In this document: one piece after another, positions 32,324 to 42,497 of the stretch
Numbering within the stretch: the stretch's first letter is position 1
How the letters are laid out: each line of letters opens with the position of its first letter
From: Halobacteriovoraceae bacterium
Lineage (GTDB): Bacteria > Bdellovibrionota > Bacteriovoracia > Bacteriovoracales > Bacteriovoracaceae
Assembly: GCA_002706205.1 (NCBI GenBank)
Contig: PAKC01000092.1
Location: 9,520 to 53,766, forward strand
Length of the DNA stretch: 44,247 bases
Direction of reading: 5' to 3'
Made by a program: the position numbers and the translations under genes
Notes under the pieces: model-generated
What the model was told of the DNA's origin: nothing
The model's input: only the letters and a program-made list of their open reading frames with translations
The model's database searches: none

Positions 32324-33121
32324 ATGAACTTACTAAAACTTTTATCCTTGGCCATCGTTGCTTATTTTATTACTGGTTGCAGCACAGATAAGCAATTTCA
32401 AAAAAAATTACAACAAGCACTTACAGATAATCCAGATATTGTCTTTGATACAATTAAACAACATCCTGAAAAATTTATGATGACGCTTCAAACTGCAGCA
32501 ATGGAAGCAAAGCAGAGTATGGCAAAAAAGGCACAAGAAGAAGAAGTTAAGCAGCTTGAACAAGCACTTAATAATCCCCTTAAACCTAAGATTGAAAAAT
32601 CGAGAATTATTAAGGGAAATCCAAATGCTCCTCTTACAATCGTAGAATATTCTGACTTTGAATGTCCATTTTGTGCAAGAGGTTATAATACAGTTAATCA
32701 GCTATTCAAAAAATACCCTGGCAAAATCAAATTTATCTTTAAACACCTCCCTTTAAATATACATCCAAACGCCATGATAAGTGCTAAGTACTTTGAAGCG
32801 ATAGCATTACAGTCAAAAAAGAAGGCATTACAATTCCATAACCAAATATTTGAACAACAAAAAAAACTTAAACAAGGAGAAAAGTTTTTAAAAAAGCTTG
32901 CTAATAATCTCAATATTGACATGAGCAAACTTGCTAAAGACATCAACTCTGATCAAATTGAAAAACTTATTACCTCTGATATGGAAGAAGCGAAAAAGTA
33001 TGGCATGCAAGGAACTCCAGGCTTTATAATTAACGGTATTCCTGTCAGAGGTGCCTACCCTGCAGAGTATTTTGATGAAATTATCAAAAAACTCACGGCC
33101 AAAGGAAAGCTTACACTTTAA
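32324..33121 (+). CDS. DsbA-like thiol-disulfide oxidoreductase, lipoprotein
   Basis: A 265-residue lipoprotein. The signal peptide ends with the lipobox ITGC (lipidated C19), followed by a helical, charged spacer (20-95) and a DsbA/thioredoxin-fold domain. The active site is CPFC (C114 and C117) in VEYSDFECPFCARG, and the cis-proline loop is MQGTPGFIINGIPV. Related proteins (BdbD/DsbA-like, DsbG-like) make or repair disulfide bonds in the envelope. The missing Asp after the lipid Cys (Ser instead) allows outer-membrane sorting in E. coli terms. GGAG precedes the ATG. The operator-like repeats upstream suggest control by the adjacent two-component pair. A stem-loop follows the gene. Confidence 0.93.
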   Translation: MNLLKLLSLAIVAYFITGCSTDKQFQKKLQQALTDNPDIVFDTIKQHPEKFMMTLQTAAMEAKQSMAKKAQEEEVKQLEQALNNPLKPKIEKSRIIKGNPNAPLTIVEYSDFECPFCARGYNTVNQLFKKYPGKIKFIFKHLPLNIHPNAMISAKYFEAIALQSKKKALQFHNQIFEQQKKLKQGEKFLKKLANNLNIDMSKLAKDINSDQIEKLITSDMEEAKKYGMQGTPGFIINGIPVRGAYPAEYFDEIIKKLTAKGKLTL

Positions 33122-37364: not shown

Positions 37365-37922
37365 ATGAAAAAAAACTCATTATTATTACTTCTCTCTATA
37401 CTTTTACTGCCATTCAATCTTCAAGCTTCAACGAAATTGGACAGTTCCATCTTAGACTCTATCAAGGCCATATTACCAAATATTGAAAATAATCAAAAAA
37501 TTAAAACTCAAGGCTGCTCATTTCAAAAACAAAAGTGGCTTACGGCCTTACTTACCCAAGAAAGTTTTACTGAAACCCTAAAGTTTAAAAAAGACTGTGA
37601 TTTAGAAGGTCAATATACAGTTAAAGTTAATGATTTTTTCCCGATTAATCTTAAAATTCAAAAGCATAAACATATCAAAAGAATTATCACAAATTTAAAA
37701 TTAGAAATTATCTTTACTGAGTCGGCACAGCTTCAAATAAAAATGAAGGATGCTATTTTAAAAAGTAACAAAGATATAAGTTTTGATATGACCTATAAAA
37801 TAGAAATTGATCCCATGGCAGCGTCTCCTTTAAGAAAACACAAAGGTGGGGAAGTTTTCTTAAAACAAGTAGGAACAAAAAAGATAAATAAAAGTTTTCC
37901 CATCAATTTAAAAACTATGTAA
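37365..37922 (+). CDS. small secreted hypothetical protein
   Basis: A 185-residue protein with a clear signal peptide (KKNSLLLLLSILLLPFNLQAS, cut after QAS) and a mature part of amphipathic beta strands. It includes two Cys (GCSFQKQ, KDCDLEG). I recognise no family; the strand pattern (GQYTVKVNDFFPINLKIQ; NLKLEIIFTES) suggests a small beta-rich periplasmic domain. The ATG has no Shine-Dalgarno and sits just after a strong terminator, with TATCAT six bases before it, so it may be leaderless. A similar-sized secreted gene follows in the same direction. Confidence 0.7.
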   Translation: MKKNSLLLLLSILLLPFNLQASTKLDSSILDSIKAILPNIENNQKIKTQGCSFQKQKWLTALLTQESFTETLKFKKDCDLEGQYTVKVNDFFPINLKIQKHKHIKRIITNLKLEIIFTESAQLQIKMKDAILKSNKDISFDMTYKIEIDPMAASPLRKHKGGEVFLKQVGTKKINKSFPINLKTM

Positions 37923-38443: not shown

Positions 38444-38480
38444 CTTAAAGCACGACTTAGTTTTCAAGTAGTGCTTTAAG
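38444..38480. terminator. convergent terminator hairpin
   Basis: CTTAAAGCAC (38444-38453) pairs perfectly with GTGCTTTAAG (38471-38480), with an inner ACTT/AAGT pair. It lies between the convergent secreted-protein genes and includes the last codons of the minus-strand gene. T runs on both sides are modest. Confidence 0.65.
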
Positions 38481-41400
38481 CTTTTCCTTATCAGATTCTT
38501 CAACATCTTCATAATTTATACTTTCTTCTTCGGAAGTTACAGAAGCCTGTGCCCGTTTAAGAACACGATCATAGTTTCTTTTATAGGCCTTAGAAACGAT
38601 TGTAAACAAAGTATCAGCTTTTTGTCGATCTAACTCTTTTTTACCTTTTCTGAGTCTATTTAATAAGGACTCAACCTCTTGAGTGCTCATATTCTGATCT
38701 TGATATCTTTGTTGATTATTTGAACTCCCATATTCAGAAGCTGTTGAATTTGATGAATGTCCACTTTGTTGATGACTAAGTCTTGAGGGCATGACAATAT
38801 TCACACCAGAGGAAGTCGCTTGATTCTGTCCCGACTCATCTGACTGCGAAGAACTTAACGTATCATTCATCTGATTAACAGCATCAGCTAAATTATTTAA
38901 ACTTTTTGCATTTCCACTCCCTCGAGATTTTGAATCACCAAACTTAGATAGTTTTACAGACTCAGTTGGTGAGTTAGCTTTACTTAGAAAAGATTTATTT
39001 TCGGCGAGGGCATTTTGACTTGTTTTAGAGGCTAAATTAGCACTCGCTTTTTCAAGATTTTTTTGTGAACTGATATCGGCATTCCTTCTCAAAGCACTAG
39101 ACTTTGCTGCATTTAAAGCTTCAATTTCAGCAGGATTAAAAACTTCTGACTTTGATAGTTTATCCATCTGAGAATTAAAAACTTCCAGATTTGTCTCTCC
39201 TTCGAAATTAAGTTTCTTAAAAATATCATAAAATGCTTTTCTGTACTTTATATTTCTAGACTGAGTACCAGCAGCAGCCTCTCCTAAAGAATTATATTCC
39301 TTAACCCTTTTTTCCCAGTCAGCGTTATATAAGCTTGCAGCATCAGCATATTTAATTGCACGAGAAGAAGCCAAAGAGCCTAATTGCTTCATATTATAAG
39401 CGACCAGATTAAAATACTGATCCATACCAACTAAAGGATAACCCATATAATTATTTTTTGTTAAGTGAGACCATTTATAATGAATTTCATAAGCATATTT
39501 AGCAAAATCAGAAGCTTCCGAAGAAGACTCAAATAAGTAACCAAAACCAATCGCTTCTTTATCAGACAAATTGGCCCCACAGTCATTTAGAGTTTTACAT
39601 AAGGCATATTTTCTGGCCCCATTAATAACGGCAACTTTGGGTTTTTTCATATTTTCAATTTGAATTTTTCCCTTCATCGGTAAAAAATGACCTGCTTTAA
39701 TCGCATCACCCAAATGGTCCTGATTACCAAAACTGTCACCACCATTTAGATAGCCGCTTTTAATATGTCCACCTGGTGCCCTTCCTTTTAAATAACGGAT
39801 ACCCGAATCAGTAGCATCTCGTAACATCTCAGGAAATGTTTGCGTATATTTTGGCATCTTATTTAATGAAATAATATTCTCAGAAACAAATAAAGGTAAA
39901 GTTGGATCCATGACATAATTTATATAACCATCAGCATCTTCACGATACCCGGCCTTAAAACATGTCGATGCGCGCCCTTTTGTTTGACACCTCAGGCTCG
40001 ACTGTAAAGCTTTGTTATCAAAACGAGGACCTAAGAAATAACGATGAAACCCATCCATTTTTTTCACACAAACACCTAGAACCCTTTTCACACACTTACC
40101 CTTAACCGTTTTTACGTCAACAATCTCCGGAGTAGAATCAATATCATCTCCTTGATAATATCGCCAAGCTGCTTGCATTGAGTGTTTAGTTGCTGCCTTA
40201 GAATAACCAGCTGAACCTTTATCAAAGTCAAAAAATGAATTGGCCAAGATTCCATTTCCTAAACCTAAAGTCAGTATATTAAAAATTTTAAACCAACCAG
40301 GTCTATAAGTATAACCCCACTTATAAAGCATGACTGAATGTCCTTCAGGATTAGATTTCATCAACCTTTTCCCAGAGATACGATCTTTAAAAACTTCATG
40401 GAAGTCAATATTGGAAATAAAATCACTTAATTCTGATAATTCTTTTTCAAGGTCCGAGTTATCGACAAATCTTTTCACCTGAGCTTCAGCTCTAAGCTGT
40501 AACCACTCAACTAAAAGTTTTTCATGAGAAATAGCGATAGCACCTTTATCTATTTCCTCAATTCTGGCATTATCTTTATCTACCTCTGAAACCTTTTTAT
40601 CCAATGTAGAAATAGAGGTTCCGTCAATTTTACTTTCTTTTTGTCCTTTATTTAAATCTTTCCCTAAAGAAACTTGTAATTCTTTTTTCTGAACGTCACA
40701 ATTATTGTTAAAAAAGTTTTGTTTCACCGAACTAAAGTTGGAAGGCCCAAAAATAGCGACACATTTACAGGCCATATTCTTATCGATTTCCTGCATTTTT
40801 TTCAACATTTTTGAACGGTTTTTACGAAAGGTTTTAGCAACTTTATTTGCACGAGAAAATATATTACCTTTACTTCCGTCTTCCCAATAATCTTGAGTTC
40901 CTTTATGACTATAAACATACTCAAAGGCTCTTAAAAATAGTTCTGCATTTTTTTCTTTATTTGAAGCATCTCTCCAAGCATCATTTAAAGAGTTGAATTC
41001 ACATTTTTTAATATCAGAATACGTTTTAGCTGTAACTCCAGGTATTTGATATTTATTTATATAGTCTTGTTTCTTTAAAGAAACACCCATTGCTCCAGTT
41101 TTTGCCATACAAATACGATATTGCTCTGATCCTTGAGTATTGTTTTTAGCGCAAGCTTCTCCTTTTTTTACATTTTCAGCGAGGTATTTTTTTTCAGTTT
41201 TATCAACTGCTCGCATACAATTATTGTGTGAAGGGCTTCCATTACTAAATTTATCACCACACTTCTCACGTTGTTTGGCCACATCATCCATTTGTTTTTG
41301 GGTTAACCCAGTAAATTTATCCTCCGTATAGTTTTTTTCTAATCTATCAACAGCTTCTAAACAGGCGGTTAAATCTTTTGAATTTGCAGCATTGTTAGTC

Positions 41401-42497
41401 TGACAATCTGAACGTTTTTCTTTTATAAGTTGTTTTTGTGCTTCAGATATTTCATATTTCTTTTCTGCGGCCTTTACAGAACTCACAAAAATATTTAAGA
41501 CAAAGTGAACGGACTTGAGTATTCCTTGCTTAAATGAATCATGAAAACTATATTTAGGTACAGGTGCAACACATCGTCCCTTAACGTTTAAAAATCCAGG
41601 ACAACAGCTCTTGCCTTTAACTAATTTATTTCCATCTCTAACACAGTCTAGACATTTCGAAACTTCAATGCATCGATTATTAACACATGATTGAGAACAA
41701 CAGTCCGAAGATGTTTGACACAAATCACCAGTATTTTTACAAGAATTTGTAACAATCACATCGCTGATATCTAAATTTGTACAACTTCCTTGAGCGCAAA
41801 TAAAGTTTTCTTTATCACATTTTTCACCAATATTTCTAATACGAGAACAGACAAACTGAGCTCTACAGCTTCCTGCTGATTCGGAAGTTTTTTTGTAACA
41901 AATTCCAGAGCAACAATCATTATTTTTCTGACAAGTCTCAGTGGATTTCAAACAAGACTTTCCCTGAAGAGCTTCTTTTGCCACTTGAACTTTTACATGA
42001 TTCATGCAACATTTTTTATTCCCAACAACCTCACCTTCACTAGCACAGCCAATAGAGTTTGCAGTTATTTTTTTCAAATAGCCATCAAACACTTTTTTAT
42101 ATTTATTTTTCCAAAAATTATAAATCTGTTGCTCACTCAAACCTTGAGGAGTTGAGAGATTAAATAGTCGCTTATATTCTGAGACCCAAAATAGTAAATT
42201 TTGATTTGTAGCGTAGCCTGAAATATATAATGATTGAGCTTGTTGATAAAAGGCCGTATAAAGATCTTTTGGTAAATACCCTTTAAACTCCGTTGACGTT
42301 TTTAAATTACGCTGCTTCCAGGCAACTTCAAACAAATTTTCATACGCTTGCCGATAGTCTTTAATCTCTGCTTGGGTTAAGCTTGTTTGATAATAACTTT
42401 TATCGTTTTTCACTTGTTGCAATAATGACTGTATCTGATTACCCATTGCAGTTTGGGCCCACAAAAGCAAAAAGATCACTATTGATAAATTTCTCAT
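38457..42497 (-). CDS. very large secreted cysteine-rich protein
   Basis: A 1346-residue protein with a signal peptide (NLSIVIFLLLWAQTAMGN) and no later membrane helix. Residues about 150-310 are packed with cysteines in knottin-like order. Examples are SCLKSTETCQKNNDCCSGIC and SCKNTGDLCQTSSDCCSQSC, each followed by further Cys. This is the C-CC-C-C layout of disulfide-knotted domains. Next is a region of charged helices with scattered Cys pairs (350-480). A long globular middle (about 480-1080) shows no known family and contains MACKCVAIFGPSN and CVKRVLGVCVKK. A Ser/Gln/Asn-rich linker (about 1190-1270) and a charged coiled C-terminus close the protein. GAGGAT lies before the ATG. It must be exported by Sec; surface display or a role in prey contact are guesses only. 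Confidence 0.82.
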   Translation of the reverse strand: MRNLSIVIFLLLWAQTAMGNQIQSLLQQVKNDKSYYQTSLTQAEIKDYRQAYENLFEVAWKQRNLKTSTEFKGYLPKDLYTAFYQQAQSLYISGYATNQNLLFWVSEYKRLFNLSTPQGLSEQQIYNFWKNKYKKVFDGYLKKITANSIGCASEGEVVGNKKCCMNHVKVQVAKEALQGKSCLKSTETCQKNNDCCSGICYKKTSESAGSCRAQFVCSRIRNIGEKCDKENFICAQGSCTNLDISDVIVTNSCKNTGDLCQTSSDCCSQSCVNNRCIEVSKCLDCVRDGNKLVKGKSCCPGFLNVKGRCVAPVPKYSFHDSFKQGILKSVHFVLNIFVSSVKAAEKKYEISEAQKQLIKEKRSDCQTNNAANSKDLTACLEAVDRLEKNYTEDKFTGLTQKQMDDVAKQREKCGDKFSNGSPSHNNCMRAVDKTEKKYLAENVKKGEACAKNNTQGSEQYRICMAKTGAMGVSLKKQDYINKYQIPGVTAKTYSDIKKCEFNSLNDAWRDASNKEKNAELFLRAFEYVYSHKGTQDYWEDGSKGNIFSRANKVAKTFRKNRSKMLKKMQEIDKNMACKCVAIFGPSNFSSVKQNFFNNNCDVQKKELQVSLGKDLNKGQKESKIDGTSISTLDKKVSEVDKDNARIEEIDKGAIAISHEKLLVEWLQLRAEAQVKRFVDNSDLEKELSELSDFISNIDFHEVFKDRISGKRLMKSNPEGHSVMLYKWGYTYRPGWFKIFNILTLGLGNGILANSFFDFDKGSAGYSKAATKHSMQAAWRYYQGDDIDSTPEIVDVKTVKGKCVKRVLGVCVKKMDGFHRYFLGPRFDNKALQSSLRCQTKGRASTCFKAGYREDADGYINYVMDPTLPLFVSENIISLNKMPKYTQTFPEMLRDATDSGIRYLKGRAPGGHIKSGYLNGGDSFGNQDHLGDAIKAGHFLPMKGKIQIENMKKPKVAVINGARKYALCKTLNDCGANLSDKEAIGFGYLFESSSEASDFAKYAYEIHYKWSHLTKNNYMGYPLVGMDQYFNLVAYNMKQLGSLASSRAIKYADAASLYNADWEKRVKEYNSLGEAAAGTQSRNIKYRKAFYDIFKKLNFEGETNLEVFNSQMDKLSKSEVFNPAEIEALNAAKSSALRRNADISSQKNLEKASANLASKTSQNALAENKSFLSKANSPTESVKLSKFGDSKSRGSGNAKSLNNLADAVNQMNDTLSSSQSDESGQNQATSSGVNIVMPSRLSHQQSGHSSNSTASEYGSSNNQQRYQDQNMSTQEVESLLNRLRKGKKELDRQKADTLFTIVSKAYKRNYDRVLKRAQASVTSEEESINYEDVEESDKEKLKALLEN

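What the first reader, a model, noticed from the sequence alone, without database searches (positions are those of the whole stretch)
38457..42497. Giant secreted protein with knottin-like cysteine clusters
Tandem segments with the order C-C-CC-C-C (for example CQKNNDCCSGIC and CQTSSDCCSQSC) are reminiscent of inhibitor cystine knots, more familiar from eukaryotic toxins and dickkopf-like domains. They are fused to a long unknown domain and a Ser/Gln/Asn-rich linker in a 1346-residue exported bacterial protein. If this is a predatory bacterium, it is a candidate prey-interaction or surface factor.
Basis: partly seen in the sequence, partly recalled or inferred. Interest (0 to 1): 0.62.

Follow-up and report, generated by a model that had tools for sequence, protein, structure and literature searches.

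The report
Bacterial surface protein with knotted-disulfide modules
A 1346-residue exported protein of an uncultured relative of predatory bacteria carries a string of small knotted-disulfide modules like those in spider and cone-snail toxins, appears to be built as two exported halves joined in one chain, and ends in a short tail shared by many unrelated exported proteins of the same bacterial family.

Summary
The gene runs on the minus strand (window 38457-42497, 1346 aa, 40 Cys, 24 of them in residues 145-312). Two full C-C-CC-C-C hexads (182-211, 253-276) sit in a larger Cys array. In 31 homologues the cysteines are lost in pairs that follow the cystine-knot wiring: C1 with C4 in three modules, C2 with C5 in one, leaving C3-C6. 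A profile search of the PDB, an AlphaFold model and Foldseek all lead to knottins or their Dickkopf/colipase cousins. The array is confined to GTDB family Bacteriovoracaceae (47 of 369 genomes of the phylum, all in that family), nearly always single-copy, and syntenic within the window's clade. Best reading: a secreted envelope or surface precursor whose knotted N-terminal part is separable from an envelope-retained C-terminal part. A prey-contact role is possible but untested; a known predator seems to lack the knot array.

The parts
38457..42497 (-). whole gene, 1346 aa secreted protein (P0001)
   Evidence: homologues full-length in 30 other rows
42441..42497 (-). N-terminal signal peptide, residues 1-19 (cut predicted after AMG)
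   Evidence: sequence; hydropathy; N-terminal signal-like sequence in homologues
42006..42047 (-). Cys module A, residues 151-164 (C151, C163, C164); C151-C164 lost together
41865..41954 (-). ICK module B, residues 182-211 (C182, 189, 195, 196, 200, 211)
   Evidence: spacing; C182-C196 lost together; PDB matches pB1, ALO3, maurocalcine
41781..41849 (-). four-Cys spacer, residues 217-239 (C217, 227, 234, 239, invariant)
41670..41741 (-). ICK module C, residues 253-276 (C253, 260, 266, 267, 271, 276)
   Evidence: C253-C267 and C260-C271 lost together; whole module cleanly absent in L078 and L079
41571..41654 (-). Cys module D, residues 282-309 (CxxC...CC...C, invariant)
41469..41531 (-). internal signal-peptide-like segment, residues 323-343, predicted signal peptidase I cut after A343
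   Evidence: -1 Ala 31/31, -3 Ala 27/31; gene split at this point in L086/L044
40398..41051 (-). helical middle domain, residues 483-700, with conserved C499 and CKC (577, 579)
40218..40298 (-). hydrophobic segment, residues 734-760; transmembrane-like, sometimes paired, in most homologues, weak here
39408..40130 (-). C-terminal domain, residues 790-1030, invariant C837 and C846
38688..39170 (-). Ser/Asn/Gln/Gly-rich low-complexity linker, residues about 1110-1270
   Evidence: (low model confidence)
38547..38657 (-). conserved C-terminal tail, residues 1281-1317 (ADTLFTIVSKAYKRNYDRVL)

Best explanation
A single-copy envelope or surface protein of Bacteriovoracaceae. It is exported through Sec by its N-terminal signal peptide (inferred from sequence). 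In the periplasm its N-terminal 24 cysteines oxidise into an array of disulfide modules, at least two of which are inhibitor cystine knots (supported by comparative evidence, not by chemistry). The chain carries a second, internal signal-peptide-like segment ending in A-x-A, so signal peptidase I can cut it after residue 343 (inferred). This would separate a compact, protease-resistant knot-array protein of about 320 residues from a helical C-terminal part of about 1000 residues. The C-terminal part stays with the envelope through a hydrophobic segment and/or the family-wide C-terminal tail (inferred). The knot array is then the outward-facing binding or inhibitor module, whose targets (prey surface, prey protease, other cells) are unknown. 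Step confidences: exported ~0.97; knots ~0.85; cut at 343 ~0.5; tail as targeting or anchoring signal ~0.5; knot array acting on another cell ~0.35.
For: Knots: ICK spacing beyond chance. Paired losses in 31 homologues: C151-C164 18 both/13 neither/0 mixed; C182-C196 15/15/1; C253-C267 26/3/0; C260-C271 27/2/0; no other pair of array cysteines was significantly associated. On a tree built without these columns the losses are 3, 6, 3 and 1 independent changes, and all 10 supported independent pairs go the same way. Module C is removed whole in two homologues. All 9 PDB sequences matched by the profile are ICK peptides or Dickkopf-4. The AlphaFold model (pLDDT 77.6) matches knottins, colipase, Dickkopf and double-knot toxin in most of its 26 Foldseek hits. 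Internal cut: -1 Ala in 31/31, -3 Ala in 27/31, -2 variable, K/R upstream of the hydrophobic run; in G016 the gene is split there into two overlapping ORFs (TAATG), the second starting with its own signal peptide. Tail: shared with otherwise unrelated exported proteins (E 4.9e-7 over 34 residues only), at the extreme C-terminus in 20/20 sampled hits, 2-8 per genome and concentrated in this family. A DsbA-type oxidoreductase is encoded about 5 kb away.
Against: No disulfide has been measured, and the model's sulphur distances could not be read. Foldseek E-values are all weak (best 0.73), and the window protein is below the Pfam cut-off for every knottin-like family. An internal signal peptide after an already exported domain has the wrong orientation for ordinary Sec insertion, so the cut may not occur. 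By hydropathy alone the internal site is not the best-scoring site in most homologues. The hydrophobic segment is weak in this protein. Nothing found points to a target.
Confidence: 0.5

Rival explanations
1. Uncut structural envelope protein. The A-x-A segment is a relic of an old gene fusion, kept as a short membrane-associated helix. The Cys modules are rigid spacers in the bacterium's own envelope, and nothing is released or aimed at other cells.
For: Synteny and single copy in one clade look like a housekeeping envelope component. In the other clade the gene is followed by an operon of membrane-bound polyamine-type enzymes. The array occurs in many lineages of unknown lifestyle.
Against: The -3/-1 positions are conserved while -2 varies freely, the signature of a working cleavage site rather than a relic. 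One genome encodes the two halves separately.
Confidence: 0.3
2. Predation effector. The knot array or the hydrophobic hairpin acts directly on prey, as a prey-protease inhibitor or a membrane-inserting module.
For: Family known for intraperiplasmic predators (PMC11656739). ICK modules elsewhere are inhibitors and channel blockers (established knowledge). Ala/Gly-rich hydrophobic hairpin in many homologues.
Against: The array is not found in the genome whose length fits the known predator H. marinus SJ. It is present in only 47 family genomes. No toxin or inhibitor family matched above cut-off.
Confidence: 0.2
3. The Cys region is disulfide-rich but not knotted, for example a Dickkopf/colipase-like or novel fold that shares only spacing with knottins.
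For: Dickkopf and colipase appear among the fold and profile hits. Modules A, D and the four-Cys spacer are not complete hexads.
Against: The co-loss pairs are exactly C1-C4 and C2-C5. Most fold hits are single ICK peptides. A whole hexad is removed as a unit.
Confidence: 0.12

Closest known systems
Inhibitor cystine knot / knottin peptides (omega-atracotoxin, maurocalcine, ALO3, pB1, conotoxins)
   Same: six-Cys spacing C-C-CC-C-C, wiring C1-C4 and C2-C5 supported by paired losses, predicted fold of single modules (TM-score by target length 0.61-0.71 for several)
   Different: bacterial; tandem modules embedded in a 1346-residue chain with extra partial Cys modules; no common descent shown
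Multi-domain Cys-rich secreted proteins, 'SCREPs' (PMC6262176), incl. double-knot toxin DkTx and Dickkopf
   Same: several disulfide modules in one secreted chain; SCREPs are reported from bacteria as well
   Different: here fused to a unique helical region, an internal signal-peptide-like segment and a family-specific C-terminal tail
C-terminal sorting tags (PEP-CTERM, MYXO-CTERM, GlyGly-CTERM, T9SS C-terminal domain)
   Same: short conserved extreme C-terminus on otherwise unrelated exported proteins, preceded by a low-complexity linker
   Different: no transmembrane helix, no beta-sandwich, no NCBIfam match for this protein; concentrated in one family; no processing enzyme identified
Bdellovibrio MIDAS-family adhesins (Bd0875, PMC11003981)
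   Same: exported proteins of predatory Bdellovibrionota
   Different: no von Willebrand/MIDAS domain matched here

Membership tests
Inhibitor cystine knot (knottin) | six cysteines in order C-C-CC-C-C within about 30-40 residues | tested here: met
   two matches at 182 and 253; chance rate
Inhibitor cystine knot (knottin) | disulfides C1-C4, C2-C5, C3-C6 | tested here: inconclusive
   C1-C4 supported in modules A, B and C, C2-C5 in module C; C3-C6 by elimination only; no chemistry
Inhibitor cystine knot (knottin) | small beta-rich fold with the third disulfide threading the ring | tested here: inconclusive
   model and Foldseek hits agree with the fold, E-values weak; threading not readable without coordinates
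Inhibitor cystine knot (knottin) | match above the cut-off of a knottin-like Pfam family (a detection aid rather than a defining property) | tested here: not met
   UPF0506 21.3 bits vs cut-off 23.2; Dickkopf_N 14.3 vs 25; a relative reaches E 1.8e-6 with UPF0506
Dickkopf N-terminal Cys-rich region (PF04706) | score above gathering cut-off | tested here: not met
   14.3 bits vs 25
Known C-terminal sorting tags (PEP-CTERM, MYXO-CTERM, T9SS CTD) | match to an NCBIfam model | tested here: not met
   0 families for P0001; tail alone has no convincing Pfam family
Signal peptidase I substrate at residue 343 | small residues at -3 and -1 after a hydrophobic run preceded by K/R | tested here: met
   actual cleavage not testable here
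MIDAS-family adhesin | von Willebrand-like domain with MIDAS motif | tested here: not met
   no such Pfam match

The most novel reading that the evidence does not exclude
Bacteriovoracaceae have a dedicated export or anchoring route that recognises a C-terminal tail ([LI]Fxx[IV][ST]xxY...YPxLL), and one of its clients is a secreted polyprotein from which signal peptidase frees a bacterial tandem cystine-knot protein.
Probability: 0.25. Interest if true: 0.85.

Novelty: new variant of a known kind. Interest (0 to 1): 0.62.

Why it matters
Cystine knots are studied almost only in eukaryotes. A bacterial family with comparative evidence for knot wiring gives an independent system for how such modules arise and how bacteria fold them. 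The internal signal-peptide-like site suggests that an exported bacterial protein can be made as a two-part precursor. The shared C-terminal tail, at the extreme C-terminus of 2-8 otherwise unrelated exported proteins per genome, is a concrete candidate for a sorting or anchoring signal in a family of predators, and gives a handle on surface proteins that currently have no annotation.

Tried and rejected
Plasmid and phage collections hold no relative. No solved structure matches the 1000-residue C-terminal part by sequence, and its model is too poor (pLDDT 56.6) to trust; its Foldseek hits are noise. NCBIfam has nothing. LysM-like GDTLW similarity of the tail was considered; Pfam does not support it. 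A general polyamine-operon function was considered; the operon adjoins the gene only in one clade, and the window's own genome shows only a short spermidine-synthase-type match and no match to the AdoMet-decarboxylase fusion. A prey-universal role was rejected because the array is absent from most family genomes. Literature search found no paper joining cystine knot and Bdellovibrio. Internal translation starts at the second signal segment were considered and rejected: no Met is conserved there. The hydropathy ranking of the internal site was not decisive. One alignment call failed by mistake.

Full report
WHAT IS THERE. The finding lies on the minus strand: window 38457-42497, ATG start, 1346 residues, 40 Cys. 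The window is part of a 2.9 Mb, 92% complete genome. Its nearest named relatives are Halobacteriovoraceae/Bacteriovoracaceae MAGs. Order along the protein: signal peptide (1-19); N-terminal stretch; a Cys array (151-309, 24 Cys) made of partial module A, ICK hexad B (182-211), a four-Cys spacer, ICK hexad C (253-276) and module D; an internal signal-peptide-like segment (323-343); a helical middle domain; a hydrophobic segment near 740; a C-terminal domain with invariant C837 and C846; a Ser/Asn/Gln/Gly-rich linker; and a conserved tail (1281-1317).

IS IT MORE THAN CHANCE? An expression for ICK spacing matches twice in the protein. Shuffled whole proteins match once or more in 0.045% of cases and never twice in 20,000; shuffles of the Cys-rich region alone match twice in 0.29%. 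The family is real and under selection: full-length homologues at 18-44% identity keep most of the cysteines.

IS IT A KNOT? In 31 homologues the cysteines are lost in pairs. C151 and C164: both in 18, neither in 13, never one alone. C182 and C196 (C1, C4 of hexad B): both 15, neither 15, one alone 1. C253 and C267 (C1, C4 of hexad C): 26, 3, 0. C260 and C271 (C2, C5 of hexad C): 27, 2, 0. No other pair is significantly associated. On a tree built without these columns the losses are 3, 6, 3 and 1 separate changes, and every supported independent pair (10 in all) goes the same way; single modules have too few pairs for significance, but the direction is uniform. C1-C4 plus C2-C5 leaves C3-C6, which is the inhibitor-cystine-knot wiring. 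Two homologues lack hexad C cleanly, so it behaves as a unit. A profile of the region matched nine PDB sequences at E up to 1, all of them ICK peptides or Dickkopf-4. The AlphaFold model (pLDDT 77.6) gave 26 Foldseek hits, nearly all knottins, double-knot toxin, colipase or Dickkopf, with target-normalised TM-scores of 0.61-0.71 for several single ICK peptides; no E-value is significant. The window protein itself falls below the Pfam cut-offs. I take the knots as likely (about 0.85) but unproven.

AN INTERNAL SIGNAL PEPTIDE? Just after the array all 31 homologues have a K/R-containing stretch, a hydrophobic run (weak in L079) and a small-x-Ala site: -1 is Ala in 31/31, -3 is Ala in 27/31, while -2 takes many residues and +1 is often Gln (for L085 the script chose a different site from the one seen in the alignment). 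That is the pattern signal peptidase I leaves. In genome G016 (L044/L086) the gene is split at this place: a 279-residue ORF with signal peptide and Cys array ends with a TAATG overlap, and a 966-residue ORF starts with its own signal peptide. So the two halves are separable exported units. Whether the joined form is cut is unknown: an internal signal segment after an exported domain has the wrong orientation for standard insertion, and hydropathy alone does not single the site out.

THE C-TERMINAL PART. No Pfam or PDB relative was found, and the model is poor. A hydrophobic, sometimes paired, segment near residue 740 is strong in most homologues and weak in the window protein.

THE TAIL. The last 34-40 residues recur on otherwise unrelated exported proteins. 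A profile-profile comparison with three paralogues of G061 aligns only the tail (E 4.9e-7). A first profile found it in 81 of 291 genomes of the phylum; every listed match is in this family, one to seven per genome. A broader profile found it in 46 of 50 listed family genomes, two to eight times each, with seven marginal single hits in other families (E 1e-4 to 1e-3). In 20 of 20 sampled hits it lies at the very end of the ORF, and most fetched genes begin with signal-peptide-like sequences. In 75 tail proteins the tail ends a median of 7 residues from the stop and follows a stretch richer in Ser/Gly/Asn/Thr/Gln/Ala (55% vs 39%). The window's own genome has three more. Ten such proteins have no Pfam domain. 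This is a candidate family-specific sorting or anchoring signal.

DISTRIBUTION AND CONTEXT. The Cys array is found in 47 of 369 genomes of the phylum, all in this family. The genome whose chromosome is 3,435,933 bp (G005), matching the 3.436 Mb given for the predator Halobacteriovorax marinus SJ (PMC11656739), is not among them, although it has tail proteins. This identification rests on length only. In the window's clade the locus is syntenic in about nine genomes (YchJ-like gene, giant gene, 185-aa exported protein, response regulator, a Maf-like gene, a gamma-carbonic-anhydrase-like gene, arginine decarboxylase; the Maf and carbonic-anhydrase names are from sequence inspection). In the other clade the gene is followed by three membrane-protein genes: acyltransferase-3-like (weak match), AdoMet-decarboxylase fused to a membrane domain, and a membrane spermidine-synthase-like protein. 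Spermidine synthases with 7TM domains are known from PspA operons (PMC11237479).

VERDICT. Observation confirmed; knot reading well supported; surface or prey role open. New variant of a known kind, with two unexpected features (internal signal segment, shared tail) that deserve follow-up.

Noticed in passing
window 38547-38657 (-); also L105-L124, L154-L195: A C-terminal tail motif ([LI]Fxx[IV][ST]xxY...YPxLL) ends 2-8 otherwise unrelated exported proteins per genome in Bacteriovoracaceae; candidate new sorting signal.
   Followed up: partly
L154: 3128-5131 (+), 7504-9855 (-), 10009-12846 (-): Three further tail-bearing exported proteins lie together on contig C21 of the window's own genome; none has a confident Pfam domain.
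   Followed up: partly
L086 5467-9206 (+) (= L044 3155-6894): The giant gene is split at the internal signal segment into two overlapping ORFs, each with its own signal peptide.
   Followed up: yes
L038 3804-7788 (-), and L039, L040, L041, L117, L120: In one clade the giant gene heads a conserved operon with an acyltransferase-3-like protein, an AdoMet-decarboxylase/membrane fusion and a membrane spermidine-synthase-like protein.
   Followed up: partly
window 32324-33121 (+): DsbA-family (Thioredoxin_4) CPFC oxidoreductase, lipoprotein-like start, about 5 kb from the Cys-rich gene; possible disulfide catalyst, not conserved next to it in most relatives.
   Followed up: partly
window 37365-37922 (+): 185-aa exported protein without Pfam family, conserved next to the giant gene in several genomes of the clade.
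   Followed up: no
L176 658-5005 (-) and L155 2614-6973 (+): Tandem pairs of 700-760-aa tail proteins with similar signal peptides in genus g15.
   Followed up: no
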